The notes under the pieces: generated by a model
Databases searched by the model: none
What the model saw: the letters and a program-made list of their open reading frames with translations, nothing else
What the model was told of the DNA's origin: nothing
Source of the DNA: Gordius sp. MW1
Lineage: Eukaryota > Nematomorpha > Gordioida > Gordea > Gordiidae
Length of the DNA stretch: 64,000 nt
Direction of reading: 5' to 3'
Assembly: GCA_964036665.1 (NCBI GenBank)
Contig: OZ038530.1
Span: 5,904,501 to 5,968,500 of the forward strand
In this document: piece after piece, positions 1 through 59,900 of the stretch
Position numbering within the stretch: the first letter of the stretch is position 1
Layout: each line of letters starts with the position of its first letter
Made by a program: the position numbers and the translations under genes

Positions 1-51
1 TTTATTAATTACAAACATAACGAAATTTTTAAAATTTGTGTGTAAATTTAG

Positions 52-3000
52 GATTTCACCTTTCGCCCAAACCTTCGTCATACATACCAGAATCTTGTAT
101 GTTAATCCTTTTGGGCGTATTTTCTGGAATGATCATCTTTTTTTCGCGAATCGGAAACATTGATTACACCCTATCGACCGGTGTCTTTTTCTTGTTTTTG
201 CTACCTCCCATAGTGTTGGAGGCTGGCTACTTCATGCCGAGGAGACCATTTTTTGAGAATATAGGCACGATATTATTACTTGCGGTCGTGGGAACTCTTT
301 GGAACACACTTTGTATGGGCTTAGCTCTATGGGGCATTTCCCGTTCAGGTATTAAATGTAAATGTCAAGTTTGCTATTATTATATGATCGGCTTAGGTTT
401 GGTCGGATTTCAAGTTCCATTGCTACATTGCTTATTGTTCAGTAGCTTGATATCAGCGGTTGACCCGGTGGCTATATTGGCTGTGTTCGAAGAAGCTCAA
501 GTCAACGAAGTATTACACATAGTCGTGTTTGGGGAATCTTTGCTAAATGACGGAGTCGCCGTTGTAAGTTAAACACTTAACCGATGTTTGCAGACTACAT
601 ATATACATATAATTAATATATGTTCACGACTTTAAAATAAAAACTGTTTATTGTTTAACGCTCTTAGGTATTGTATAATATGTTCGGAGTTTACAGCAAG
701 ATTGGGTATCAAAATATTATAACGCGAGACATCGTTAACGGTATTCTCTCATTTTTTGTGGTTGCCTTGGGGGGCACGTTGATAGGAGTTTTGTTTGGTA
801 TATTTATCGGATGGCTCACCAAGTAATTTAGCACCTAAAAATATTTTAACGCTTTGTTTGGTTAGGTACACGGTAAAGGTTACAATTATAGAACCGTTAT
901 TTGTCTTTTTACTGGCATACGTGTCATACCTCGTGGCTGATATGTTCAAGTTATCCGGAATATTAGCGTAAGTTGCACATCCATTTTGATATGAAGAAGA
1001 TTATTTTAAATTATAGGATTGTTTTTTGTGGGTTAACCATGAGAAAATATGTGGAAGCTAATATAGCACCGAAATCTGAAACGACCGTGAAATACACGAT
1101 GAAAATGTTGAGTAGCATGTGTGAAAGTATCATATTCCTCTTCTTAGGACTGTCGACGGTTGTCGATTACCACGTCTGGAACACCGCGTTCACTTTATTT
1201 TCCATCTTCTTTTCCCTCTTATTTAGAGCTCTAGGTCAATAAATTTATTTTTTTAATTTAATCTATACCATCGTAATTGCATATTTTTATGTTGCAAACA
1301 AAAATAGTTTGTCTTTAGTCATTTTTAGACCAAAATATACATTTTTAATGGAGAATTAACAAAATTTTTGAATAGTTATTTGTTTTAGATTTGAATTTTT
1401 AGGCTCTTATTTAAAGAACAAAATATTTTCAATCTCATTTGATCCTGTTTATTATTTATAAGAACCCATCGATATAGTTGTATTTTTTGCATAAATTTAG
1501 GTGTCTTGATAATGATCCCTTTTTTGAATCGTCGACGCTTAATCAAGATGGGTAGCGTTGATATCTTTATTTTGATATATGGCGGGTTGAGAGGCGCTAT
1601 TTCCTTCTCTTTAGCCCTCTTGCTAGACGAGGGATCAATCGGTGAAATTAATAAGAAAATGTTCGTTACCACAACTGTAACCATTGTCATATTTACATCA
1701 TTCTTTCAGGTTTGTTTATGCAAGCTTACGAACATTCGTATTCAAATTTTATATTTATCCGAGTAGGGTTTGACGATAAGACCACTGGTCGAGGTTTTGA
1801 GAGTTAAGAAGGCTGTCGTCAAGGATAAAAACATGGGTGAAATTTTATTCGAAAGGGTATAAGTTATTAATTTAAGCGATTAACAACCTTTTAGTGCTTT
1901 GATCATTTACTTGTTGGAATTGAAGATCTAGTGGGTGCTAGGGGAAGGAACAGAATTAGAGATCAGTGAGATAATTAAAATGTTATGTTATATATACGTG
2001 CAAAGGTTTGAGGTTTTTGAATCAAAATATCTGAAACCTTATCTCATGAAACGAGCCCCTCAATCCAGAGAAAATAAATTGATTGAAGTATGTACCAAAC
2101 TCAACTTGAAAGATGCCAACGCCTACATACAGCAATGCGGAGGCGACATACTTGCTATGAAAAAGGATTTATCGTACAATAAATTTTATAATCGTATTAT
2201 TTTATTTTAGCTTTTATTCTCATTAATTTGATAACCTATTTTTATATATTTATGGGATAAGAATGATGGATGACTCTCAGGCCATAGGAGATATGCCAGT
2301 GATAGATACATCTCACCTTGATCCCGTATATTCAAATCGGGAAGATAACGATAAGTGGCATGGAATGATGGAAGATATCATGTATCAACCTCGTCAAAAA
2401 GTATCCACTCCGTCTTTAAAAAATTTCACATACTTCAAAATAGCGCATTTTTGTGTATGTATTTCTAATATTTCTCTTCAATTTTCTTTCTTGCCTTTCC
2501 TCAGACCAGCTCAGTAAGTGCCCTTTTCACTTTATGGCTCAGATTTATTAAATATGCTTGCAACCATTAGTTCATATGCTTGAATAACTGTGCTTTGCTT
2601 CAAACCAAATATACCCGTTCAAGCCCGCGAATTAAATAGTATTTTGAGTCTAATTTATAGAAATACCAGTATTATTTTATTCGCGGACTCGTGAATCGAG
2701 CATATATATGCTATTTCTTGAAAGGTTTAATATTTGTATGTTGTTTAAAGTAGGCCTCGAGTGCTATACGCTTCTTGCTATACTTATTTGACATATTTTT
2801 AGATTAAAAAATACAGTCGTCATATGTTATTCGACAATCCGCCTCACGTCAGCATACAAACTACCCCTGCGCACAGGCATACTTCGAGACTAAAAACTTC
2901 AAGGCCATTACTTGAACCAAAATCGTACAAAAAGCCTCGAAGCTCGGAAAAGACCTTAAGTAAAACAGGTAAAGGGCAATTTTTATATCGTGTGAATGAA

Positions 3001-6000
3001 TTACATGGCTATAATAATTGAAAATATATTTAATAGAAAGTATCAGGAGTAAAACATCGATAAACTCCAGCCGATCCAGGTACGGTGGAATAGGTGCCAC
3101 GTTGCGACGTTTGTCGCTAAGCTTAACTGGTTCACCGACCCATGAAGCTCCTTCAAATAATGGTATACGCAGGCCAGATGATGCCATATATTTTTCCGCG
3201 ACGCCGCTCAAAAAGATTCCTGAAGTACCTAGTTCGAGCCATTTGGAGGTGAATGGGTCCACGGCAAATACTATAAAACCGACGTCGACACCTAGCCAAA
3301 AAATATCTCCAAATGAACCTTACGGTTCTGAAGAAGGCGTAGAAGTTATCGAAAATAAAGGTGTTTCGCCTTCAGCAAGTCTAAAACACGTTAATTTCAT
3401 AGCAACTCCTAAACCGGCCCCTTCCTCAAGTCCAAAATCTGCCACAAGTTTACATTGCGTTAAAACTTTGAGCGATATAATTATTTTTAAGCTAAATATG
3501 CTGTATGAGACTATTGTTCAATTTTAAACTGACAGAAAGATCTATCCAAAATCAAATCGTAAATGATGACCCTCACAGTGATAGGGAAAACGAAAGGTTG
3601 CTGAAAGATGAGGATTCATCTGGTGCAAACACATCTACGCCCCCAAAAATACCCTTGTCAACGACCCATATACCAAAACCGCCGTATAAGCTGTCACCAG
3701 CTGCCTCCATGGTAACATTAATTTCATCATAAAAAGGAGAATTAGTTTCATAAGAGTCTTTCTTACGTGGCTTAGGCGGGGGGGGGGGAAGGTTCCGGGT
3801 AAATTAAATCAATATTAAATTTATAATTATTGTACGAAATATTATGTATACAATTATAATAGGTCTATTGTTAGCTTTGTGTAGAAATTAACAATAGGGG
3901 AGACGGGGGAGTAAATGGCCATTAAAAATTAAATCACGTTTTAAAAAAATTAATAATGTCTTTTATAATATTTTTATTGGAATACATTGTTATAGTCTAT
4001 TTCTACTATAAGAAAAAAAATCGAGAAAAAAGTGCATATAGTTTTTTTATAAAATGAGTTTAAAAAATCAAAAATCCTAAAAATTTTAAAAGTGCCCGGG
4101 GCTAGTTATAGCTCTGTTCAGGGGATAAATTAACCCTGACGTTTTCATTTCTTAATAGTGTATGCTAACTCAAATCCATAAATAGGTTGTTACATTATAA
4201 AAAACATAGAAAATGCAAATATAATATGATTGTATTTTACATAATACAAATAAAAAAGGGTCAAGATGACAATCTGAAAAGTACACTAAAGACAGATTTT
4301 GCAATGGAAAAAAACTTTAAATCGTTTTTTTAAGTATAATCATAGTCTATTTCTATTCTAATTACACTAAGTTGGATTATAAACAAAATTTTTGTTTTTT
4401 AAATTTTGTCATTTGTATGACCCAATGAAAATGGCTAGAACTAGCCCCTCTCCGACTAGCCCCGACCCCTATTTTCATAAACATTCAATAATTTTACATA
4501 TTCGATTGCGAATAAATATTTAATCATTAGATGGTTTTTATATAAAAAATATCCCTTTATTTAATAAAAGTTAAATCAATTCAAAATACAATGCCAAAAA
4601 ATTTTATGTGCAAAATACAAAATTTTGTCAAGGCTACTAATAGCCCCGAAAAATCGTTTTTCTTCTATAAAAATTTTAAATTTTATTTTTTTCTAAACAA
4701 AAATTTTTTACTTATACCTTATGGAAAAATACACATATGGTTTAAATTTTAATTATATATCATTATTATTTTAAAAATAATTACAAAGATAATAGTAACC
4801 CCGGGCTACGACTAGCCCCGGTCTCTCCTAATTAAATTAGCGCATTTATTTATTCTCTTATCGAAATTAATATTATGACGAAAAGCTAGTCTAGGCTAAT
4901 ACCAACCCTTTTCCCGCCCTACTTAGTGTTAAAAATTAATAGAAATAGGTTAATCAATACTTTCCTAAAATAGTTACATATGAACTGTGTCTATTAATAA
5001 TTTATTGACCTTCCATAACTTCATTTATAAAGCAACCGGTAATATAGTTTGGTCTTGCTCATAATCTTTGTTTTATTTATCATAAATTTGTAAAAATTAA
5101 GCTTGGAAAATAGTATTTGTTTCTATAACTTTCATTGTAAAGCCCAAGATCATTTTAATGTATAATTCACAGTATCAAATGTATGAGGTCAAAAATAATG
5201 CTAAAAATTAACAGATTTAATTTAGCCCTTTGATATTATTTATTTTTAATCCTCAATTTTTTAATATATATTTGCCAATTCTATTTTTTTTATAAATACT
5301 ATGAATTAAGAATTAAAGTCTTGCAGTCAGATTGTACTAATTTTTGGGTCGAGATATAGTTTAGCTCTTAGATATTATTTATTTTTTATCCTCAATTTTT
5401 TAATATATATTTGCCAATTCTATTTTTTTCATAAATAATATGAATTAAGAATTAAAGTCTTGCATTCATATTGTACTAATTTTAATATCTGAAAATTCCA
5501 TTTATAATAATTATTCAAATTATTTAACCTTAATTTAATTCTACACTAAACAGAAAAATCAACCGGCAATTTGCTTGCAGATTTTAGTAGAGTTTTCGCG
5601 GTACGTCAAGAATATTTGCTTTTAAGGTTGCTAAAAACAGCGATTTGGGCGTTATTCAAACCAGAGACCAGAAATGCCCGGCCCGGCCGGCCCACGGGCC
5701 GGGCAGGGCCGGACAACTGTCTTAAATTTTAACTGTCGGGCTAGCCCGGACGGGCACGCTGATAAGATTCGGGCAATTCAGGCATAGTTAAATTAAAATC
5801 ATAGTATATTATCTTGTTACTTATTTATTAGATTGTATATTGCGAATGCTGCCACCCCCAAGCTAAATCTTTGCCCGCTCTATTTCTTAGCCACGTTTAT
5901 GGAAAGGATTGAAATATTAATATTTATGTAGCCATTTCATGGTTCGCAATACACACGTGGGCCGTCTAGACTTAAAACAAAGGCTTCATGCCATAATTTT

Positions 6001-9000
6001 TTTAAAAAATGAAATCAAATTCAATTCGCCTTTTTTATTCCCTAATCTACGCTAATACTTATTTCTAGTTTCTATTATAATTAATTTCCATATCATTCTT
6101 TTTCCCCCCATTTTATTCGCCCTTTATATTTTCTTATCTACGCTATTAATTATTTTTATAATACACAACTAATAATTCACAACCATTCTTTTTTTGCTTC
6201 AAATAAAAAAAATTTCCATTCTATTCTTAGCAAAGTAAGTATTAATAATTGAAAAAAAAATTTTATTACTAAATTGCATTAGCAATTAATCTATCAAAAT
6301 TCTGTGACCTTTTTTTAAAAGTGGTTGAAAGATTTTGGGATTGCATAAATTCGGGTCTAACGGGCAAATTTGAATGGCTCGGGCATGGCCGAGCGGACAC
6401 TTAGAAGGTTCAGGCGGGCAATTCAGTTAAATTTTAAACGGGGCCCAATTCGAGCAGAAAATTTTTAACAAATCTGACCTCTGTTTGGGACCGCATAAAT
6501 TCGCGATTAACGGGCAAATTTAGGGTTAGCGATTCGGGCGGGCCCGGGCGGACACTTAGATGGGTTCGCGCGAGCCCGGGCGGGTAATGAAGTTAAAAAA
6601 TTGAATCAAGCCGGGTCCGGGCAGAAAATTCTAAACAAATCTGACCTCTGATTCAAACGTCCATAACTTGCAAATTAATCGGTAAAATTTTGATAATCAA
6701 TAACATTTAGAAATAGAGAGAATTTTGTTAGTTTAATAAACATCAATTAATTATAAAATGGAACATTTCAAAAACAAACCTCAGTTTATACTCTATAAAT
6801 TACAAATAAAAATCTAATTAATTATTTAGTAGGCTTTTAGCGGGCCTTGCGTATATCTAGGCCCGGGCCTAGCCCCTTAAATTATATTACGGCCACTCGA
6901 GGCTCGGCCCGTTGTTTTATTTTATAGCAGAGGTTTTTTTTTATCATGTCTAGTAATTCTCGATAATTCTAGGTATGTTTACTATATAAACATTTTTCTA
7001 TAAGTTTTATATTTGATCACACAACGCCCTTAATTTGGTGGAAAAAGATATGCGCCAATTAAGCTAATAGTGCTCTGGTGGTTAGAATATTTTTACTGCT
7101 GCCTTCTTGTGCGGCTTAATAATTTAGCCTAGATTAGGTAAGAATTATAGTAAACTCAGGAACAAACTGGCAATGAGGAGTAACATAATTGTGGCAATAC
7201 GACACATTCTATATATAAGCCGCCTAAATTTTTGCGATTATGATGCTAGGTGATCTTCAGAATGAATTAATGGACCTATTGATTTTGTTAATATGTTATA
7301 ATATACATTTTTAATTACATATGTAGGCATATTTAATATCTTGTTGCATGTATTAAATATTAGATGTTAAATGGGTTGTTTTTTTGGTTTTTATAATCTA
7401 TATATATAAAGTAAAGTGTATATATGTATGTAAGGGCTAATCTCGGAAACTACCGGCCCGATTCGCGCGAAAATTTACCCCTAGGTTCCCAGGGCGGCCA
7501 GGGGTAAAATAGCTTTTTCAGAATCCTAAAATTCCTTTTAATTTTCGAGATATTGGGTTTTATGCGTTTTGACGTTCAATAAAATGTCAATCAAACGCAC
7601 CTCCTCGCGTTCGTCGAAAATTTGAATATACAGACAGTTCTGTAGTAAAAGTGTATCACTTATAGTAGTTTGTAAAACGTAATCTTTTCTTAACGGTGAC
7701 AACATAAATTTTATGAATTAAATTCCTTAAACGTCATCTTTTCTTAACGGTGACAATATAAAATTTATGAATTAAATTTCTTAAACGTCATCTTTTCTTA
7801 ACGGTGACAAGACAACATAAAATTTATGAATTAAATTTCTTAAACGTCATAACGGTGACAACATAAAATTTATGAATTAACCTGAAATAAATAAAATTAT
7901 AGATTATTTGAGAAAATATATAGGTGAAGAAGATGAATTTTTCTCATTATCATTAAATGAGATATTTTAAATGAGAAAGATGAGAGTATATATAATTTAA
8001 ATGTAATATAAAATATCTCCAAAGTTGATTATTCTGAGTAAATGCTATTTATATATAAATGTCATTATTTATCTATCATTAATTTTTATTAAATGAGATA
8101 TTTAAATGCGAATAAATTCTGAAACTACCGGCCCGATTCGCGCGAAACTTTACACGTAGGTTCTCAGGGCGGCCAGGTGTAAAATAGCTTTTTCAGATTG
8201 CTAAAATTCCTTTTAGTTTTAAAAATATCGGACAATTCTCGGCCTTTTGGTTTTAAAAAAGGGCTAAATTCTGAAACTTCAGATCCGATTCGAGCGAAAA
8301 TTTAGCCGTAGATGCCCAGATAGGCCAGGGGTAAAATAGCTTTTTCAGATTCCTAAAATACCTTTTTGTTTCAAAAATATATGACGTCATACATACAAAG
8401 CTGAAGTTTTCTCGAATTAGATATCTAAAAGTATAATAAAAATGTTACAGTATACGGTTAAAATTATTGGGGTTTAACAGACTATTTAAATTAAATAAAT
8501 AAAATTTAAATTATGCAGTTTTTGTCATTATTATCACGTGGTCGATCATAGAAGCATATTTTTAATAATTATCCATCCTTCAATTAATTATTTTATTATA
8601 TTAAAGAAAATTGTATTTCAAATAAATCAGCTAACTAGAAAAATAAAATAATGGTATTATTGTATAATAAGTAACAGCTTTAATAAGCAATTTTTTCAAA
8701 AACATTTAATTTTAGTCGGATTTGATGACTAAAACAGAATTTGCATTTGGTTTGTCTTATTATATAAATATATACTAAAAATAGTGGGTTCATAAAATCA
8801 TTCGGACCTTTCACATTATAAATTATTTCATATATGACCCCATTTTAGATAAGTCTTATTAATAGCTTATACTTAATTAACCACTTAAGGACTGAGCCAA
8901 AGCAACGCTTGGCCGGGCACAGCTAGTAGTATATATTGATAAAAAGTTAATTCAAAATGATGTTAAAAGAACGGGAAAAGAGATGTAAACGATAATAATT

Positions 9001-38553: not shown

Positions 38554-41500
38554 ATGTCCGAAGTCACTATATCAATATTAACAACTTCAGTAATGTTTGC
38601 TTTTGCATATGCTGTCGAGCATACCCCACCCCCAACTCACATAGAAAATGGGGTCGATCATTACAGAGTGGCCGAATTCAATTTTCACCACGTCGAAACG
38701 CCTATTATGATCACTTTATGGATGGTTTTGGCGAGTTTATTTAAAATAGGTGAGTTTGTATTATATAGTTTTGTCCTTACATTCCACCTAGACGTATATG
38801 CATTTGCGACTTTAAAATGGCTACCATTTATCAATTTTTTTATACTCTTTACATCTGACAAATAATATTTTAAAATGAATTTTATGTTTTATTTTTTCAC
38901 ACCCAAACAATCAATTTTATTGTCAGATAAAACTATGTTATCGTAAATAACAAATTCTACATCTCGGAGAATATATTATAATGATGTTAATGGTAATAAT
39001 GTACATCACGCAATATTCGCAGCATTCTATTTTTCACCGAAGCCATCAAGTTACGTCCCTGAATCGTGTATGCTAATTTTGCTGGGTGTCATAGCAGGAA
39101 TTGTTTTATACTTTTCAAAGCTAACGGGCATCGATTATACATTGTCAACGACAGCATTCTTCCTATTCTTGCTGCCACCCATTGTGTTAGATGCAGGCTA
39201 TTTTATGCCGAGGAGACCCTTTTTCCAAAATCTAGGCACTATCCTAGTCCTTGCGATCTTTGGGACACTTTGGAACACATTGGCTTTGGGGTTCACTCTG
39301 TATGGATTATCGGAAACAAGTAGTTACTTTTTTCCCTCCGCTCCGACTTGACGTGAGTTTTAAAATAGGCGCCATGCAGTTCGAAGCTTAGTCTAGGGGA
39401 ATTTTAAATGCATTATAAAGCAAAATGGCTTATTAGGTTTCTAATTGCGCCTCATTAAGTCCCCAATAAATTTATACTTTTTCACGACATCCGCTCTCGT
39501 AGAATGTCGACTAAAACAATATGGCTAAGATTTATATTAATCGACTCACGTTGTTACTGTTTTATTATCCGCAAGAATTTCTTTGGCGGGACGACATGCT
39601 ACCTCAAGTTACTTTTAGGTTCAATAATAAACTCGGACCAATTAAATTAAAAAATATTCACAAATTTATTATTTAAGTTTTTCAGTTAATTTTTCGTAAA
39701 AAATTCCAATTTGCTTTTCTAATTTGGCAATTTATAAAAATTGATCAAGTATTTTTAATATTTTTACCTTTTCGTCACGATAACAATTTTTTTGATTTCT
39801 CTTCACATCATTTTTTTAAAAGAAACTCTGCCGCCCTACATGTATTTAATTAGATAAACCCTACGATTGTTTTAAAATTAGGGTTTTATCAAACTTTGCA
39901 TAGTAACTATTTTGCCACGCAATTTTAGGTATATATATTTATTTTAAATTTTTTAACGACAGGAGTTCTTGGGTTTGATATACCTCTGATGCATTGTCTT
40001 TTATTTGCGGCATTGATATCTGCGGTAGATCCGGTGGCTATTTTGGCTGTTTTCGAAGACGCGCATGTCAATGAAAACCTCAACATCATAGTTTTTGGTG
40101 AATCGCTCCTCAATGACGGTGTTGCTGTGGTATTATTTTCACGCCTCTAATTCACTAGATATATATATATATATCTTTATATGATTGGCTGCAATTTATT
40201 TTTATATTAATCTTATTTTTACGAAATATTTTCCAGACTTCACCCCTAAACGACCAACTACTATTTTTATTTTATTATCTCCCTTTTAAAAATTTCATTA
40301 AAGCTTATTAAGTTTAGACAGAGGAATTTTTAATACATACATATAAATTTGGTAAGCATTTGCGGCATATATAAAGTCAAATGCAATGAGTTAAAATTGG
40401 AGTAAGACTTTTCAATAGAATTTTTGTGAGTCGTGTTATTTATAGAAAGGCGTTCTAAATCAACATAAAAAGGACTTTCTTTAAATTTGTATGAAATTGT
40501 TTAAAATGCAAGCAAATTTTATATAATACTGAAATTTAAGGTAAAACATAGATAGTAAATGCGACTGGATTATTATAATTTATATTTAGTGCAATGTAAT
40601 GACAAAAATTATGAAAGCTAGACTAGCCTATTTAAATAAAATCATAAGATAATCAATAAGTATGTGAAAAATTTTAGCTGTAAAAATATATAGATTTTTT
40701 AATTCTGCCGGCAATTTTATCTTTGGCACCTTTATAGGATTTTATCGATTATTTTTAGTTACAACACCTCAGTGTAAAAAGGTATTTATAGTTAATATTT
40801 GAAACTAATTAATTTTTATCTTACAAAAAGAATCTTTTGAATAAAAAATTATTTTCTTATAAAACTTTATGTTCCCTTTTTCGGTAAGGAAACATGTAAA
40901 AAATTGCTATGACCCTAATAATGATAATGTAAATGTTAATTTTTAGAACAAACTGTGTAATATAAAAGTGTTAAACTTAATAGAGACTTGTCTAATTTGA
41001 ATGCATTGCTGGTGTTTAATTTTAGGTTTTATACAACATGTTTGGAGCATACAGTCGAATTGGTATTAATGGGATAACGAATCAAGATATAGGAAACGGT
41101 ATTTTATCCTTTTTTGTAGTGGCATTTGTCGGTACAATGATCGGAATTATTTTCGGACTTTTTACCGGATGGTTGACGAAGTAATTAATATATTTAGACC
41201 GAAAGTTATTATCAAATTGCATATTACCGTTATTTGTATTTAATTTTTTAAGATATACTGAAAAAGTTAGAATTATTGAACCGATATTCGTGTTTCTATT
41301 GGCATACTTATCCTACTTGGTTTCTGATATGTTTAAACTGTCTGGAATATTGGCGTAAGTTATATCATTTATAACTCCTTCCACTAATATCTAGAGTCAA
41401 TCCACAAATTTTTACAATGACTATCATCATTCGATTTTGCTGGATACTATCATAAAAATTTGTGGAAGGGCTCTAGAAATTGTGATATTTTACTATTTAA

Positions 41501-47569: not shown

Positions 47570-50500
47570 TAGAGAACTGCAAAGTCACTTTTTTCAACAC
47601 GGACCCGACCCGAATTTTGTAAATATTTTTAACCCGAGCCCAATTCGATCCGAAGGCATTTTAAAATCTTCAACCCAAACGCGACCCGACTCGAAGACAT
47701 TTTAAAATTTTAAACCCTAACCCGCCCCGAAAGCGTTTAAATTTTTTAACCGAATCCCTCATAAACGCGTTTTAAATTTTGGTATCTAACGCAAGTTTAA
47801 GAAAATTTGCGGTGTGCATGGGCGTAGGCAGGGGGTGGCAGGGGCGGGCGGCTCTAAATTAAAAAAATCTTAAGATATTTTGTCAAATAGTAGCTAAAAT
47901 TCGAAAAAATGGTTATTTTGCCCCTCCCGTAATCATCATTTCCCCATTTTTATCCCGGCTGCGCCCATGAGTAGTGGTGGGGAAAACCTGAGGTCAGGTG
48001 GACCTCAGGTAAACCTGAGGTGAGGTTTAGGTTAACCTAAAACCTAAACTTAAGGTGAGGTTCGAGGTTTATAAGGACCTCAAGGTTTTTCATATAAAAA
48101 ACCTTAAAACCTCAGGTCCACCTTGAGGTCACCTCGAGGTTTCAACAAGTATGCTTCATCTTTTATATCTTAATTTTACGACTAAATTATAGTCTCTAAC
48201 AAAAATTTTTTATTAAGTATATATATATATATTAAAAATAGTTCAAAATTTATTTTAATAGCAAATTACGTATATAATGTATAAATTTTTACACTCTATT
48301 AAATTATCATTTTACTTGATAGAATTAATGCATGTGTATTTTGCTGCCATCTACATTGTATTATATTTTTATAACACATTTTTAAAATTCCCTGCCTATC
48401 TATGGCATCCTGTGATATACACACCTTTTATTTTTTTAATAGTTCTTTTATGGACAAAAAGGGATAATTGTATGAATTTTATGTATTTTAGATTGTATAA
48501 ATAGTAAGACGGCCGGGCGGCACCAAAAATAAATATACTTTTTTTATATCTTAATTAAGAATTCCTCATTTACTTTAAAATGCTCAGCTTTAAATTAATA
48601 ATGCTCAAGTATTTTTGTTAAAATGCTCAGTAAAATAAATTCATAATTTGTGATATTAATTTATTATGCGCTTACATTTTATAAATAATAATTTAATTGG
48701 TATAAAATTTTTTTTTAAATTAAGAACTTTGCCCCCTACCTTTTTTTGTCCCGTTGGTTTCTCCCCCCTTCCTTTTTTTACCCTCTTTCTCACCTGGGGG
48801 GAGGGGGGGGGGGGGGGTAATTTGACCCCCCCCCCCCCCCTTTTCCCAATTTTTTTTACCTTCTTTCTCACCCGGGGGGGATTTGATTTGGGCCCCTTAT
48901 TATTTGCACTCTTCCCCAGGTGAGAAAGAGGGTAAAAAAGGGGTGTTACAAGGGTGGGTAAATCACCCCCCATCCCTCCCCCCAAGAGGGTAAAAAACAA
49001 GGGGGGGGGGGGGGAGAAACCAACGGGACAAAAAAAGGGAGGGGGCAAAGTTCTTAATTTAAAAAAAAAATTGTATACCAATTAAATTATTATTTATAAA
49101 ATGTAAGCGCAAAATAAATTAATATCACAAATTATGAATTTATTTTACTGACCATTTTAACAAAAATACTGAGCATTATTAATTTAAAGCTGAGCATTTT
49201 AAAGTTAATTTACTGATCAATTTTGAGTTTTTAACTGGGCACTTTAATAAAATACTGAGACTGAGCATTTTTTAATTTATTACTGTGCATTTAAATACCA
49301 TCTTTTTTTAATTATGATGTTTTTCGAGATTTGATCACGTCACGTTATATAGATTTAGTAAATAAAATCAAATTGCTTAAAAACTTTATCTTGGTTGACT
49401 TAAAATGAAGTTTATGCTGTTTAAATGAGGAATTCTTAATTAAGATATAAAAAAAGTATATTTATTTTTGGTGCCGCCCGGCCGTCTTACTATTTATACA
49501 ATCTAAAATACATAAAATTCATACAATTATCCCTTTTTGTCCATAAAAGAACTATTAAAAAAATAAAAGGTGTGTATATCACAGAATACCATAGATAGGC
49601 AGGGAATTTTAAAAATGTGTTATAAAATTATAACACAATGTAGATGGCAGCAAAATACACATGCATTAATTCTATCAAGTAAAATGATAATTTATTAGAG
49701 AGTAAAAATTTATACATTATATACGTAACTTGCTATTAAAGTAAAGTTGTTTGAACTATTTTGAATATATATATATACTTAATAAAATTTATTTGTTAGA
49801 GACTATAATTTAGTCGTAAAATTAAGATATAAAAAATGAAGCATACTTGTTGAAACTCGAGGTGACCTCAAGGTGGACCTGAGGTTTTAAGGTTTTTTAT
49901 ATGAAAAACCTTAAGGTCCTTATAAACCTCGAACCTCACCTTAAGGTTAGGTTTGAGGTAAACCTAACCTTGAGGTTAAGGTTTATAAAACCTCAGGTTA
50001 CCCCACAACTACCCATGAGGGTGCTTTAAATTTAATCGACAGAAAGTTTGATTTATAAAACGAATCGATACCAGATATTTTGATAGCTAAATTTTTTTGA
50101 ATGATTTATTTTAGAGATAAATATAATAGCCAACATCAGGTCACATTTAATTTGAAATGTCTCTTTTACAAATCTATCATTTAATAAATTTAAACTTACA
50201 TTTATCTGTTTTATGAATATATATTTATTTAGTTTAAATTAATTATGAACTACCGATTCACACTATTTAAATACAATTTAAAAATATTATTTTGTTGATA
50301 TGTTTTACAGGAGTCAAATTTAAATTTGCGTCCAAATTAAAACAATCAGATTAAAAAAGACAAAAGGAATTTAATTAACTGAATGAATGTTCTTCAATTA
50401 TGCATTTTGATATTAATCAAAAAATATTATACACAATAGCATTAATCTAAAAGATATATCTATTTTGCAATGTAAGATTCATAACCTTTGACCCGACACT

Positions 50501-50607
50501 TTAAATCCCACCCGACAGCATATTAAAATTTTTAACTCGAACCCGGCCCGACCCAAAAACATTTTAAAATTTTCAACCCGAACCTGACCCGACCCGAAGA
50601 CATTTCA
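47570..50607 (+). repeat. Repeat X, copy 1, carrying a foldback insertion
   Basis: Starts TAGAGAACTGCAAAG, then repeats of ACCCGACCCGAAGACATTTT type. A shared AT-rich body at 50020-50480 (TTTAAATTTAATCGAC... to GCAATGTAAGATTCATAACC) is followed by more CCCGACCCGA repeats. The same order on the minus strand forms copy 2 at 58045-58746. A hAT MITE-like block (47819-47969) and the foldback (47972-50011) lie within. Confidence 0.7.
47972..50011. mobile_element. 2.04-kb foldback element with hAT-type ends
   Basis: Perfect 8-bp target duplication CCCATGAG (47964-47971 and 50012-50019). Ends TAGTGGTGGGG and, inverted, TAGTTGTGGGG. The two halves are long inverted repeats of about 0.85-1 kb: AAGACGGCCGGGCGGCACC at about 48508 is mirrored at about 49470. 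The spacer (48720-49030) has C/G runs and TTTTTACCCTCTTTCTCACC motifs. Subterminal motifs of ACCTGAGGT type match element T (15421-22064). No convincing protein. Confidence 0.88.
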
Positions 50608-51911: not shown

Positions 51912-54900
51912 ATGTCTAAAACATCAAGCTCACCTAGACCTAATATTGGTATTGATAAGAATCTTCTTTGGGTTGAAGCTAACGAACTTGCAAAATATAT
52001 TAGTGACGCTTATAATTGTTCACCTTTAAAAAAAACGAATGATTTCAATCCTCTTGTGGGTATCATTTGTGGATCTGGCTTAGGAAATATTGCCGAAATA
52101 TTTGATGGGGATGATGAAATGGCAAAACAATCTAAAAGGCTTACCATGAATTACAAAGATATGCCTCACATGCCAGTATCATATGGTAAGAATTAGATTT
52201 GATTTTTATATTGCTCCTAGTTGAGGGACATAAAAATCAATTAACTATTGGTAGTATTAATGGCCAATATTTGTCCCTTTGCTTTCAAGGTAGATCTCAT
52301 ATTTATGAAGGCATTGACCCATATAAAGTAAGTAACTAAGAGGGCATTGTATTTATAGAGTATTAACTTTAATATGTTTTAACTATTACATACTTTAGGT
52401 TACATTACCAATTAGGGTTATGAAGTTGTTAGGAGTTAAAACATTGTTTGTTACAAACTCCTCCGGTTGTTTATCCAAACATCTCAAACCAGGAGACATA
52501 ATGATTATTAAAGATCATATAGATTTTGTTGGGCTTGCTGGTAATAATCCCTTGGTTGGATTAAATGATAAAAGGTAAAGCTTTTTTCTTTCTTTTATTA
52601 AAGGTTGAATTTAATTTTATATTTCTAGAATTGTAAATTTTAAAATTTTATCTGATGACTTTCTACTTTTTTAAAATGTAAATTAATAACAAAATTATAA
52701 TGATATTTTTTATTTCTTAAAAATTTTGGATTTGATCAAACATTTATCAAATGAAAAAATGTTGCTACCAAGTATGACAAAAAATTTCAGGGGTTAACAA
52801 GCAATGTATTAATTGAAATATATTGACGTTAGTTGCATATGAGGAAAAAATAATTAACTTCTTTTAATTTAGAAATTAATAGACAATAGCAAACTTTTTT
52901 TTGGTTTTAAAAAATCCTAGATAGAGAAAAATTGTTTAGTTCTAAAATTTTTAATGAGTAATTGTCTTTTTCTAAATAAGTGGATGCAATTGCTACATAC
53001 ATATAGAAAGCCAATGTTTAAATGAAATAATTTGTAGTGGTATAATTAGGGGAAGGCCAAGACCCTTACCCCCCAAGTGCAAAATCACTTCTGCCCCCCC
53101 CCCAAGGAAAAAATCTTGGCTTACTTGGCCCTAAGCAATTATTTAATTTATTTTAATTTAAAGATAACAATATTCTATGTATATTAATTAATTTTAAATA
53201 AATAAATATTTTTCCAATTATGCTAATTAACAATTTAGCTTTGTTATTTATTAACATGCAATTAGAATAAGCAAGCAAAACTTTTTCCTAAGGCCTCTAG
53301 CTCCAATCTCCAAACACTAGCTTAAATCAAATGTGTATATAGTATATTTTTTGAAATTAAGCAATATCAAATTGTAAAGACCTTTGTTGTTTTTATTTTT
53401 TATATTATTTTACAAAATTATAATTCTTGTCAATATACTGGGTTCATTTTGGGTTTTTATTATTGATCTGTACAAACTCGTTAATTTTATATAGCCTTAA
53501 TATAGTTTTTTCATTTTCATTGTTTTCATGTTATTTAACCATTGCTATGCAGGTTTATGTATTATTCATTATAAATTAAATTTTAATTATTACAGTTGTA
53601 TATATATATATTGTTAAAGAAGAAAATTTACAATTTTTTATAAAAGGAAACAAAATAAAAATTTTTGACCCTGGGTGGGTTTGAGCTTTTTGGAGATTTA
53701 CGTGTTAGGTCTAATTTTAAATGTAAAAGTATTTTATGATCCTTTAGATAAGTTTCATTATATCAAATATTGGAGCTAAAGGAAATTTAAAATAATCTTA
53801 TTTGGTTTAACTAGCCCAAAACTGCATATCCAAATTTGGATCATGGAATTAATCTATAATTCAAATGGATATGTTTAATTTATAAATTTAAATTAAAAAT
53901 ATTTATATAAAAATTATCTAATATATAAAATTGGGGGCAGCGCTCCTCTGTTAAGCCTACAACCTGGCGAACTCTTGGTAAAAAATAGCCTGGCCCCTTA
54001 ATAACAAATGGTAATTGTAAAAATATGGTTGATTTATCAAATAGCATTTATTAAAAGATATTTTTTACGGTATTTTAAAGCGATAGAGTTATTATAAATG
54101 ATATTACAGTGGGGGAAAGATACAAATAGAAACATACTAATGTATTGTAGCTAAATGTATTACTCTTTGGTGCAGTTTTAGTTTTGCTTTTACATTCTAA
54201 TATACTATGTGTTGCAGCTAAAATAAACTGGCCAAAAAACATTAGCTATTTTGCCCGTGCATTTGAAGTGTGGGAGTTCTTTATTAATGCCTGGGGTTAA
54301 GGATTGAATGTTTTTGTAGAAAAGTCGCGGGTTTAGTGGCAATTTTTTTTAGAATTAGAAACAAGGGAAAGTGAAAAAGTGTTGTTACATACGAAATTGA
54401 AGCTATAAACATTTACTCAAATTATAATAAGATGGGTGTGACTTAAAAATTGTGTAAACTTTCTAACGTTTTGAACTTCAATGTGTGCTCGACCTTGCCC
54501 ATCTAAGTGTGATTGGTGCTTGTTTTGAACGGCCTTCACCTTTTTATGTTATATTAACAAATTTCCCTTAACTTGCTTGTGTTTTCTAAAAACCCAATTG
54601 CGGCAAAGTTGGCCAAGCAGTTAGACAGATTAACTGGCTCACATAAAAATTTTAAAAGCTCGACACTGGTCGCATTTTAGTTTAAAAGATTTGTACTTGC
54701 AAAACTCTCAGGGGTCCTGTCTTAGACTAAAAGCGATGGTTGCAACAAGCATTTACACTTCAATTACTTGCATTTTGATGTTGATTGTTTTGCAAATTAA
54801 TGACCTTATAGATGGGGCGTCGCGTTTCCCGACATGAAAGGTGCCTACGATCCCGACCTGAGGAACAAAGCGATTCAAGCCGGTCAACGCCTGAAGTTGA

Positions 54901-55740
54901 CACCCTATTTAAAGGAAGGCATTTACGTCATGATGGGTGGACCCTATTATGCTAACGAAGCGGAAAAACTCATGTTCGCCCGGTTCGGTGGCCACGCCAT
55001 TGGTAATCCACTTTGATATAAATGCCATAATATTTTAGTACTTTAGCAATGACAAAGATTGCTCTTGAACTCCTGATTCCAACAATTATCGTTGATGAAT
55101 GATAAAGGAAACAGCTGGTTTATTTTATCAATTAGGTGACTTTAGGTTAACTGAGATTACAATCCCAATTCTATGTTTCATAAAGTAAGAATTTTAAATG
55201 GTAATATAGTTAAGGTCCACACTTGTGTGCCTTAGTTAAGCTCTTCTTCCCAAATCGTAAAGCTGCAAATTTCGGAATTTTAATTTTTTAAGACTATCTT
55301 AATATCAATTGACAATTTACCCTTCGAAAACAATTGAAAGCAACTTGTTTTGAAGACATGAAACCATAAATATTTATTAATTATGTCTGCATCCATACAA
55401 AGTTTAACTTTTATTAAGCTTGTGGCCTTTGAGTTTGCAATTGTTAAATACTTTTCATTTAAAAAAGTGTTGCCTCCATAATTATGTAATAATAATTATA
55501 TGTTTTGTAGGGGCGAGCACCGTTCCCGAAGTACTGGTCGCCCGTCAAAGCATGATGAAAATTTGTGGGTTCAGTTTAATAACAAGCCCCTTTTGCGACC
55601 CCAACGACGACTACCAAAATCCAGACACTGCCCCCAAGGATCCCGAACAAATGCTGGCCCTCTCGGTTGACGATGGTTCTCGCAGAATTGGGCAGATCAT
55701 TAAAGAAATTTTAACCAACACCGGCCCCGCTCCACCGTAA
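51912..55740 (+). CDS. Purine nucleoside phosphorylase family protein, divergent base pocket
   Basis: Trimeric (low-mass) PNP fold: phosphorolysis of purine nucleosides, cytosolic, purine salvage. Exons: 51912-52185, 52221-52327, 52399-52574, 54812-55002, 55511-55740; all junctions in phase, 325 residues (human PNP is 289; the extra length is mainly N-terminal). Phosphate-site residues are present: CGSGLG 53-58, QGRSHIYEG 114-122 and STVPE 252-256. Y224 (human Y192) is also kept. Residues that hold the base in human PNP differ: A116 becomes S148, F200 becomes Y232, E201 becomes A233, M219 becomes A251, N243 becomes S275, and the H257 region is not conserved. Intron 1 is only 35 nt; intron 3 is 2.2 kb. 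Family membership is secure, but 6-oxopurine specificity cannot be assumed. An intact frame argues against a pseudogene. Confidence 0.93.
52575..54811. repeat. Intron 3 of PNP with decayed MITE pieces
   Basis: 2.2 kb, AT-rich. Fragments at 53030-53130 (GGCCAAGACCCTTACCCCC mirrored by CTTGGCTTACTTGGCCC) and 53930-54000 look like MITE remains. No exon that would keep the frame is apparent, and exons 3 and 4 join in phase as an Arg codon. Confidence 0.5.
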
Positions 55741-56950: not shown

Positions 56951-59900
56951 TTAAACTCTGGTAGGATAGCCTCTAATAGTATGAGAAATGGTTGTAGGGT
57001 CGTAAGAACCTAATGTGGATTGATTGTAGCCATAATCATCAATAGATGAGGAATTAATTAGACTGTCGTATGTAGATATGTTTAGTTCAGATCCGCGATT
57101 TTTTGTTGAGTTTTCCAAAGATGGAGGTCTTATAAAATTTGATTTTTTGTACAATATTAAATTGTTTTATTCTCGATAACTATGGTATTGTCCCAAAAAG
57201 TCTTATTTTCGGTATGATGAAATTAAATACTTTTTGAGTCATACACAGTCATCATCGAGAATGTTAAAGTAAATTTAGCGTTATGTTATGTAATTTTACT
57301 CGTGAGGTTTGTCAGTGATTTCGCAATTCAGAGACGACATGGGCGCTTTTTTGTAGAAATGTATGGATGAGGAGGAAGATTTATTATCTTTGGTTCCTCT
57401 AAGGTGACAACAATTCAAACAATACCCTTTATACCAACTCTTCCTATCATCGGAATCTTGGGATCCTTTCATAAAACTGTCGTGGATAACTTTTAAAAAT
57501 TACGACATATATTTACACAATGTAGAGATACCATCAACTGATTCATCGTTTTGGGCTCTTCTATTATTCCCCCTTTTGAAAGGTGAAAATTTCACAAGTA
57601 AACATAGTATAGTAGATCCTACTATTATTAATGGTATGACGACGCTTAAACTGATCAACATCGGGTATTGACCTACAATTTGACACAGTTTTAATTGCTA
57701 TAGTTTTTAAACATGAATTACATCTTTCTTCGTCGGTTGCATCTATTCCCGGACAATCTTGAATTTTGTTACAAGCCAACGATTTGTCTATGCAAAAATA
57801 TGCTGGTGATGGGCACGTTGCGTGTTTACTCGTATTTAGGCACGCTTCGCTTCCTCTGCACAAAATTCCGGACGGGCATGTACCTAAAAATTATGGAAGA
57901 TTTAAGTCTTATAGAACATATATAATCTTATAAATATATTTTTGACAAAAACTTACTATTCAGCGACACCTTGACCCATCTTATTTTGAATCCTCCTTCC
58001 AATCCCTTAGCATAATGCGCTGTTTCAAACCTATCCGAATTAGTCAAAATTTTAAAATCCTTTCGGGTTTGGGTTGAAAATTTTAGTATGCTTTCGGGTC
58101 GGGTTGGATTAAAAGTGTCGGGCCAAAGGTTATGAATCTTACATTGCAAAATACACAGGACAGGACATATCTTTTAAATTATTACTATTATATATAAAAA
58201 ATTTTTAATCGAATTATATAATTGAACATTATTCATTCAGTTAATAAAATTCCTTTTGTTTTGTTAAATCTGATTGTTTTAATTTGGAAGCAAATTTAAA
58301 TTTGATTCGTTGAAGGTAAAATATATCAATAGAATAATATTTTTAAATAGTGTGAAGTGGCAGTTCATTATTAATTTAAACTAAATATGTATTCATAAAA
58401 CAATTAAAAGTATGGTTAAATTTATTAAATGATTCATTTGCAAAACTATATATTACAAATTAAATGTGACCCGATATTGTGGGTGCTATCATATTCATAT
58501 ATATCTCTATAATAAATCATTCAATGAATTTAGTAATGAAAACCTGTCGTATCAATTAGTTTCTTAAATCGCACTTTAATTTGTCGATTAAATTTAAGAA
58601 CCCTCATGGGCGTAGCCAGGATTGAAATTAGAGAGGGCAATAATGACTTTCGGGTCGGGTTCGGGTTGGAAATTTTAAAATGCTTTCGAGTCGGGTTTGG
58701 GTAGGGTCGGGTTCGGGTTGAAAAAAAGTAACTTTGCAGTTCTCTACCTACTATTAATTTCAATCATTATTTTTTAATAGATTCCCATAAGTCTTACGAA
58801 ATTTAGTAATGCATTAACTATTACTTTATTACAGCCAAATTTCTGCCAGTCAAATAAGAGCGATCAGCTTCGTTTTCAAAATATTTAACGTTCCCGCATA
58901 CATTTAACAAAGGCGTGTCGGTATAAACCAAATTTTCGTAACCGTCGTATATTTTAACATTGGCCAAATTGCATCCAGCTATAATAATGTTACATTTTTT
59001 TTGAGATAAATATTCTTACAAAGCCCTCCTTCCAAATGCAATTTTTCAATTCTCATATAAATTCTCCAGTATTTTTCTACCCTTATGACCCATAAACAGC
59101 TGAGACCGGGAGCATAGTTGTCAGGGTACCCAGGTGACGTTATATAACCCGCACTTTGGTCATTTATAAAATTGTGACACACACCATTTGCATCTTTTGC
59201 CAGGGTGTTGGGGCTAGTTACGTCTCCTTGACTCGCATTTAGTTTCAGGCGAGTCACGTTATTATGAGGTGGTTGATTATTTGTAAAATATTTGTCGTAA
59301 AATGGGAAGCGAAACTCATCTAACAACAAAATACTTGAGAGGAAAGAAATAGTTTGTAATATACTTTCGGGGACGAAATTGAATGAAGCGTTAAAACCTT
59401 TGAATTGCTTGTTGGGGCCATCGAAATTAGAAACAAATCTCATCTCCATCTTGCTCTGAAAGGAATATAATGGTTTTGGAACATTGTGTATGTCTCCGCA
59501 ATATCGTCCAATCAAATGTTTAATACCGTTATTCGCTACGTTGTATACTTCGAGGTAGTCGTTTAAACATCTATATGTAATTAATTTTAAGATTTTATAT
59601 TTTTTGCCTTAAATGTTAAACAATATCAAAGCGATGGCGATGGATGAATTTGTGCACATATATCTAAAGAAATTTCCAAGCGCCTCAAGGGACTTAAAAC
59701 TTGAATTTTGATTATTAATTGAAAATTAACAATAGGTATCAACCTATGATTGCTCATTTATCTATTATCTTAAACATCTAACAGGCGTATTGATAATAAT
59801 GTAGTACTTTCTCATAAATCTAATTTCATGTTTGGGAATTAAAAATACTGACCCGTGCTTTTTGCCAGCTCTTAGATCAAACGTTTCAAATTGAATTATG

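What the first reader, a model, noticed from the sequence alone, without database searches (positions are those of the whole stretch)
51912..55740. PNP with the phosphate site kept but the purine-binding residues replaced
Seen: the frame is intact and CGSGLG, GRSHIYEG and STVPE are kept. Aligned without gaps to human PNP over this part, E201 becomes A233, N243 becomes S275, M219 becomes A251, F200 becomes Y232 and A116 becomes S148; the H257 region also differs. E201 and N243 are the residues that make human PNP select 6-oxopurines. Replacing both while keeping catalysis-side residues suggests changed substrate choice (adenosine, a modified nucleoside, or a non-catalytic role), not simple decay.
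Basis: partly seen in the sequence, partly recalled or inferred. Interest (0 to 1): 0.75.

Follow-up and report, generated by a model that had tools for sequence, protein, structure and literature searches.

The report
Nucleoside phosphorylase with rebuilt purine pocket
An invertebrate gene for a nucleoside-splitting enzyme keeps its phosphate-gripping parts but has lost the residues that recognise the usual purine base; it belongs to a family of about a dozen such genes in the same genome, most of which have also changed that pocket, so the family looks like a natural series of enzymes with altered substrates.

Summary
Window 51912-55740 holds an intact five-exon trimeric-type PNP gene (325 aa). 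Phosphate-side and catalytic residues (S33, H64, R84, H86, Y88, E89, Y192, S220, T242) are kept. E201 is A233, N243 is S275, M219 is A251, K244 is P, and no His stands at the H257 position.

The context changes the interpretation. The animal's 211.8-Mb genome holds 12 PNP genes that I could model (a lower bound) plus one MTAP-like gene. Two (L010, L012) keep E201 and N243. Two have E/T, six Q/S, one D/A, and the window gene A/S, so 8 of 12 lack both. E201A was seen in none of 25 other rows; M219A in one (the D/A paralogue).

Changes at columns at least 90% conserved fall mainly in exons 4-5 (8 of 28, against 1 of 36 in exons 1-3), five of the eight at or beside the pocket; at strictly invariant columns the contrast is not significant. 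No carboxylate remains at either base-contact position, so an MTAP-like or N243D-like adenosine enzyme is not predicted.

Best reading: a long-lived paralogue with changed nucleoside specificity; a pseudoenzyme is the main rival. Substrate, expression and orthologues were not testable.

The parts
51912..52185 (+). Exon 1: start codon, phosphate loop CGSGLG (S33 equivalent); intron phase 1
52221..52327 (+). Exon 2: EGH (H64) and GRSHIYEG (R84, H86, Y88, E89); the preceding intron is only 35 nt; intron phase 0 after it
52399..52574 (+). Exon 3: TNSSGC (A116S, A117S, G119C); intron phase 2
54812..55002 (+). Exon 4: F159 kept, Y192 kept, GPYYANEAE (S199Y, F200Y, E201A, T202N), V217I; intron phase 1; GC3 0.61
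55511..55740 (+). Exon 5: M219A, STVPE (S220 kept), FSLITSPF (T242 kept, N243S, K244P, V245F), no His at the H257 position; stop codon; GC3 0.56
52575..54811 (+). Intron 3, 2237 nt, AT-rich (GC 0.27); no alternative PNP exon found inside it

Best explanation
The gene is an old, intact paralogue of the animal's trimeric-type purine nucleoside phosphorylases. Its phosphate-binding and catalytic side has been kept, while the purine- and ribose-contacting side has been rebuilt. The most likely mechanism is still phosphate attack on C1 prime of a bound riboside (S33, R84, H86-E89 and S220 holding phosphate, Y88 on the ribose). The base, however, is held by a smaller, uncharged pocket (A233, S275, A251, Y231/Y232), so the preferred riboside is probably not inosine or guanosine. 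Shown: sequence, gene structure, family membership, kept and replaced residues, and two canonical copies in the same genome. Inferred: trimer, retained catalysis, changed substrate.
For: Open frame and splice sites; intron phases 1/0/2/1 as in 8 of 8 group A and B models and in the re-modelled D gene. Best solved relative: 1vfn, named purine-nucleoside phosphorylase (bovine, recalled), E 1.2e-58. NCBIfam TIGR01697 238.1 against its cut-off 197.1, and NF006054 (purine-nucleoside phosphorylase) 237 against 218. Of columns conserved in at least 90% of 24 other sequences, the window gene changed 1 of 36 in exons 1-3 and 8 of 28 in exons 4-5 (Fisher p 0.008); five of the eight (R158, S199, T202, V217, M219) lie at or next to the pocket by my reading of the published site list. 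Of 23 published active-site positions it keeps 11, the fewest of 25 sequences set against human PNP, yet S33, H64, R84, H86, Y88, E89, G118, Y192, G218, S220 and T242 are kept (list from passages of PMC9916683). It groups with the genome's other PNPs at 99/97, end branch 1.48 changes per column, so it is old and has not lost its frame. L010 and L012 keep E201, N243, M219 and H257. GC in exons 4-5 is 0.52-0.53 while introns and flanks are 0.24-0.35, which fits coding constraint on those exons.
Against: No expression, structure or activity data. The E201 and N243 contacts are described as crucial for catalysis in trimeric PNPs (PMC9916683, passages), so losing both may mean very weak activity. 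At columns invariant in the 24 others the contrast between the halves is small: 1 of 22 against 2 of 15, p 0.55, and one bacterial row, L042, shows more such changes (3 of 24 and 2 of 15). No orthologue was available, so present-day selection cannot be measured. By NF006054 the protein would be annotated as an ordinary PNP.
Confidence: 0.52

Rival explanations
1. Pseudoenzyme: it folds as a PNP and binds phosphate but no longer cleaves nucleosides. It may act as a partner subunit in mixed trimers with canonical copies, as a sensor, or as a storage protein.
For: E201 and N243, called crucial for catalysis (PMC9916683, passages), are both lost, with M219 and H257. F159, which reaches into the neighbouring subunit, is kept. 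Nucleoside-phosphorylase-like proteins have become storage proteins in Populus (PMC3751785, title and abstract start in the search listing only).
Against: If catalysis were dispensable there would be little reason to keep R84, H86, E89, Y192 and S220; exons 1-3 keep 35 of 36 columns conserved at 90%.
Confidence: 0.28
2. Recent loss of function: a gene still intact but no longer selected.
For: Long end branches: 0.99 in exons 1-3 and 2.4 in exons 4-5. At strictly invariant columns the two halves do not differ significantly. E201A, G119C, K244P and E259M occur in none of 25 other rows.
Against: No stop, frameshift or broken splice site in 978 nt. At columns conserved at 90%, changes concentrate in exons 4-5, five of eight at or beside the pocket.
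Confidence: 0.12
3. Chimaera: exons 1-3 from one PNP lineage and exons 4-5 from another, joined in intron 3.
For: Third-position GC jumps from 43 of 185 codons to 82 of 141 at the exon 3/4 boundary, p 1.6e-10. Exons 4-5 share STVPE, T242 and YVM with human PNP, while groups A, B and C have STAPE, A242 and mostly YCM (L017 has FCM). Exons 1-3 group firmly with the genome's PNPs (98/94; 97/95) but exons 4-5 do so only weakly (58/0; 80/57).
Against: The D paralogue shows a smaller step at the same boundary (0.18/0.26/0.15 against 0.35/0.39) and also has ASTV and T242; group A shows a weak step. The human-like residues may be ancestral. No donor copy was found in the genome.
Confidence: 0.12

Closest known systems
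Mammalian trimeric PNP (human, bovine)
   Same: Profile and sequence relationship, phosphate loop, R84/H86/Y88/E89, Y192, S220, T242, F159
   Different: E201A, N243S, M219A, K244P, no His at 257; identity to human 46% in exons 1-3 and 41% in the core of exons 4-5
Engineered human PNP E201Q:N243D (hDM; PMC2799393, passages read)
   Same: The same two positions altered; group A of this genome has Q201 naturally, with S243
   Different: The window gene has Ala and Ser, so no Gln/Asp pair to hold a 6-amino group
Schistosoma mansoni PNP2 (PMC6128611; abstract and sections 15, 18, 20 and 21 read)
   Same: Invertebrate second PNP with a changed pocket and broadened substrates, including cytidine
   Different: SmPNP2 keeps the Glu and Asn and changes Ala118 (A116 in human numbering by the paper's offset of two) to Leu and the gate loop; the window gene loses both and has Ser at A116
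MTAP
   Same: Same superfamily; the genome has its own MTAP-like gene L018, whose partial model scores best with MTAP models, 188.2 bits
   Different: The window protein is far below the MTAP cut-off (66.5 against 274.85) and has no Asp at the N243 position (motif recalled)
Populus nucleoside-phosphorylase-like storage proteins (PMC3751785, title and abstract start only)
   Same: Precedent for a phosphorylase-like family taking a new role
   Different: Plant family; sequences not compared here

Membership tests
Trimeric PNP subfamily (TIGR01697 / PF01048) | Profile score over the curated cut-off | tested here: met
   TIGR01697 238.1 against 197.1; PF01048 133.2 against 25.1
Trimeric PNP subfamily (TIGR01697 / PF01048) | Phosphate/catalytic residues S33, R84, H86, E89, S220 | tested here: met
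Trimeric PNP subfamily (TIGR01697 / PF01048) | Homotrimer in solution | not testable with these tools
   No protein; no model was made
Purine-nucleoside phosphorylase equivalog NF006054 | Score over the cut-off 218 | tested here: met
   237; the D gene falls just short at 217.3
Inosine/guanosine-specific PNP (TIGR01700) | E201 and N243 | tested here: not met
   A233 and S275
Inosine/guanosine-specific PNP (TIGR01700) | Score over the equivalog cut-off 293.35 | tested here: not met
   244.5; weak test, since canonical L010 also falls short at 280.8 while human scores 403.9
MTAP (TIGR01694) | Score over the cut-off 274.85 | tested here: not met
   66.5
MTAP (TIGR01694) | Asp at the N243 position (motif recalled) | tested here: not met
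   Ser
Adenosine-cleaving PNP of the E201Q:N243D type | Gln and Asp at the two positions | tested here: not met
   Ala and Ser
Pseudoenzyme or storage protein | No phosphorolytic activity | not testable with these tools
   Needs an assay

The most novel reading that the evidence does not exclude
The genome holds a natural series of PNP paralogues in which base recognition has been dismantled by degrees (E/N, E/T, Q/S, D/A, A/S) while the phosphate machinery stays. The window gene would be the end point: a riboside phosphorylase for a non-purine riboside such as nicotinamide riboside or a pyrimidine or modified nucleoside, working without either of the two residues thought crucial for trimeric PNP catalysis.
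Probability: 0.2. Interest if true: 0.72.

Novelty: new variant of a known kind. Interest (0 to 1): 0.45.

Why it matters
Trimeric PNPs are textbook 6-oxopurine enzymes, and E201/N243 are described as crucial. One genome with two canonical copies and at least eight that lack both residues gives a ready-made set for asking how much of PNP catalysis depends on base contacts and which ribosides such enzymes can take. Six of the copies carry the Gln that protein engineers put at position 201, together with Asp at 243, to obtain adenosine cleavage.

Tried and rejected
Alternative exons restoring E and N: none seen in the window by tblastn with 13 queries; the remaining matches have E 0.04 or weaker.

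Transposon capture: the gene lies between inverted arms of about 560 nt (50012-50573 and 58610-58046), but these are 76% alike and belong to a repeat with 1619 first-look candidates genome-wide, 40 of them scored. I take them as two ordinary copies.

Foreign origin of exons 4-5 from their high GC: not needed. The 11 exon-level matches of actin-type and GTPase-family genes examined span GC3 0.18 to 0.68 (a few include read-through intron), and the intron phases match the family.

Chimaera: my first reading of the GC step, kept as a rival only after the D paralogue showed the same kind of step.

Species: not named. Contig C12 is a mitochondrial contig whose COX1 reads with TGA as Trp; AAA as Lys and AGA as Ser are my reading of the context by eye. 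A guess at horsehair worms led only to a listing and is not claimed.

Viral contigs: 16 stretches matched a pattern, none encoded a relative. Flanking stretches L063-L065 on C4 gave no PNP model over score 90. Structure prediction was not run: the tool takes window proteins that the DNA gives letter for letter, and a spliced protein does not fit that rule, so I did not send it.

Weak points: models of L019 and L020 are mis-spliced around exon 3/4 (phases), so their letters at 154-160 are not to be trusted; R158 in the count is touched by this. Group A models begin inside the frame, with no in-frame Met upstream before a stop, so a further 5 prime exon or a lost start is possible there. L011 was left out of the count and the trees, and entered re-modelled as L062D; near-identical L014-L016 were left out of the trees. 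On the second check I lowered the best reading from 0.55 to 0.52 and raised decay from 0.10 to 0.12 because the strictly invariant columns do not separate the halves.

Full report
The gene. Five exons between 51912 and 55740 join into a 978-nt frame (325 aa) with GT-AG at all four introns. The introns are 35, 71, 2237 and 508 nt. Intron phases 1/0/2/1 are the same in all 8 group A and B models and in the re-modelled D gene (exon lengths); the L019, L020 and first L011 models are mis-spliced and differ. Searches with exons 4-5 over the whole genome find, besides this locus, nothing above 50% identity, and that only over short pieces.

What is kept and what is lost. PMC9916683 (passages read) lists 23 active-site positions of mammalian PNP. 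The window protein keeps S33, H64, R84, H86, Y88, E89, G118, Y192, G218, S220 and T242. It changes A116S, A117S, G119C, F200Y, E201A, V217I, M219A, N243S, K244P, V245F, H257 (Glu, gap) and E259M. That is 11 of 23 kept, the fewest of 25 sequences set against human PNP: 12 from this genome and 13 bacterial. Taken one by one, F200Y (18 of 25 other rows), A116S (4 of 25) and N243S (6 of 25, all group A) are not unusual. E201A, G119C, K244P and E259M occur in none of 25, and M219A only in the D gene.

Family context. A Pfam PF01048 scan of the genome gave 24 exon matches from 35 candidates, a lower bound. Fetching the places and modelling them gave 12 PNP genes and one MTAP-like gene (L018; its partial model scores best with MTAP models, 188.2 bits, below the whole-protein cut-off 274.85). 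Group B (L010, L012) keeps E201, N243, M219 and H257. Group C (L019, L020) has E and T. Group A (L009, L013-L017; four of them between 5.74 and 5.83 Mb of the window's own contig C4) has Q and S. The D gene (L011/L062) has D and A, shares M219A with the window gene, and lacks the F159 loop. Thus 8 of 12 lack both specificity residues, and two canonical copies remain. Of 13 bacterial PNPs from the one genome scan (35 pattern matches, 13 confirmed), 11 keep E201, 10 keep N243 and 13 keep M219; L031 and L034 have Met and Asp.

Is it decay? Of columns conserved in at least 90% of the 24 other sequences then aligned, the window gene changed 1 of 36 in exons 1-3 and 8 of 28 in exons 4-5 (Fisher p 0.008). 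The eight are R158, S199, T202, D215, V217, M219, H230 and V260 in human numbering; five are at or beside the pocket, three are not, and R158 is touched by the L019 model error. At columns invariant in all 24 others the numbers are 1 of 22 and 2 of 15, p 0.55, so the evidence for a local change rests on the looser threshold and on the pocket residues themselves. Trees give the window gene an end branch of 0.99 in exons 1-3 and 2.4 in exons 4-5; the D gene has 2.02 and 2.33. The genome's PNPs including the window gene form one group at 99/97. The place of the window gene as sister to the rest has 91/83 and is not firm. The window and D genes as a pair are neither shown nor rejected (p 0.17 on the full alignment).

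Composition. Third-position GC is 43 of 185 codons in exons 1-3 and 82 of 141 in exons 4-5 (p 1.6e-10), while introns and flanks stay at 0.24-0.35. I first read this as a chimaera. The D gene shows a smaller step at the same boundary and group A a weak one, so a family-wide trend is the simpler view. The 11 other exon matches examined span GC3 0.18 to 0.68.

Mechanism. In trimeric PNPs the contacts of Glu201 to N1 and Asn243 to O6 are called crucial, and Glu89-His86-phosphate is a proposed triad (passages of PMC9916683). The engineered human pair Gln201/Asp243 cleaves adenosine-based prodrugs (passages of PMC2799393). SmPNP2 shows that an invertebrate PNP can take cytidine through pocket changes while keeping Glu and Asn (sections of PMC6128611). 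The window protein has kept the phosphate side and replaced the base side by small uncharged residues, with room on the ribose side from M219A and the missing His. I infer a phosphorylase for another riboside; nicotinamide riboside or a pyrimidine nucleoside are guesses from pocket chemistry, not results. A pseudoenzyme is the chief alternative.

Novelty. Of the literature searches bearing on this (others listed, the last out of 664), none listed a paper whose title or abstract start describes animal PNPs lacking both residues or an animal PNP family expansion; the nearest are SmPNP2 and the Populus storage-protein family. Only open-licence papers are held and I saw listings, so this is weak evidence of absence. 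I rate it a new variant of a known kind.

Noticed in passing
L009, L013-L017 (G000 contigs C2 and C4): Six PNP paralogues, four of them in a cluster at 5.74-5.83 Mb of C4, carry Q201 and S243; position 201 matches the engineered adenosine-cleaving human PNP (E201Q:N243D). Their models have no in-frame Met upstream.
   Followed up: partly
L062, reverse strand, exons 1423-1573, 1615-1718, 1827-1984, 4478-4674, 6923-7122: An intact 269-aa PNP relative lacking the F159 loop, with E201D, M219A and N243A; a second extreme pocket.
   Followed up: partly
L031 and L034 (Natribacillus, Geomicrobium): Bacterial PNPs with Met at the E201 position and Asp at N243, with S33, R84, H86, E89 and S220 kept.
   Followed up: no
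L020: Phosphate loop reads CESGL instead of CGSGL in an otherwise group C copy.
   Followed up: no
window 50012-50573 and 58046-58610: Inverted copies, 76% alike, of a very abundant dispersed repeat (1619 first-look candidates in the genome) flank the gene.
   Followed up: yes
window 33-572 and 38947-39351: Two similar frames that both match the sodium/hydrogen exchanger family PF00999 (115 and 60.4 bits), suggesting a local duplication.
   Followed up: partly
window 58979-59608, minus strand: A frame with two CUB-domain stretches (PF00431) downstream of the gene.
   Followed up: partly
G000 contigs C1, C3, C4, C5, C8: Many COX1-like pieces in the large contigs, including a near full-length one at C8:2829490-2830827: likely nuclear copies of mitochondrial DNA.
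   Followed up: no
L024 (mitochondrial contig C12), about 3690-4030: A short tandem repeat before COX1, and a nad1-like frame on the opposite strand to COX1 (by eye).
   Followed up: no
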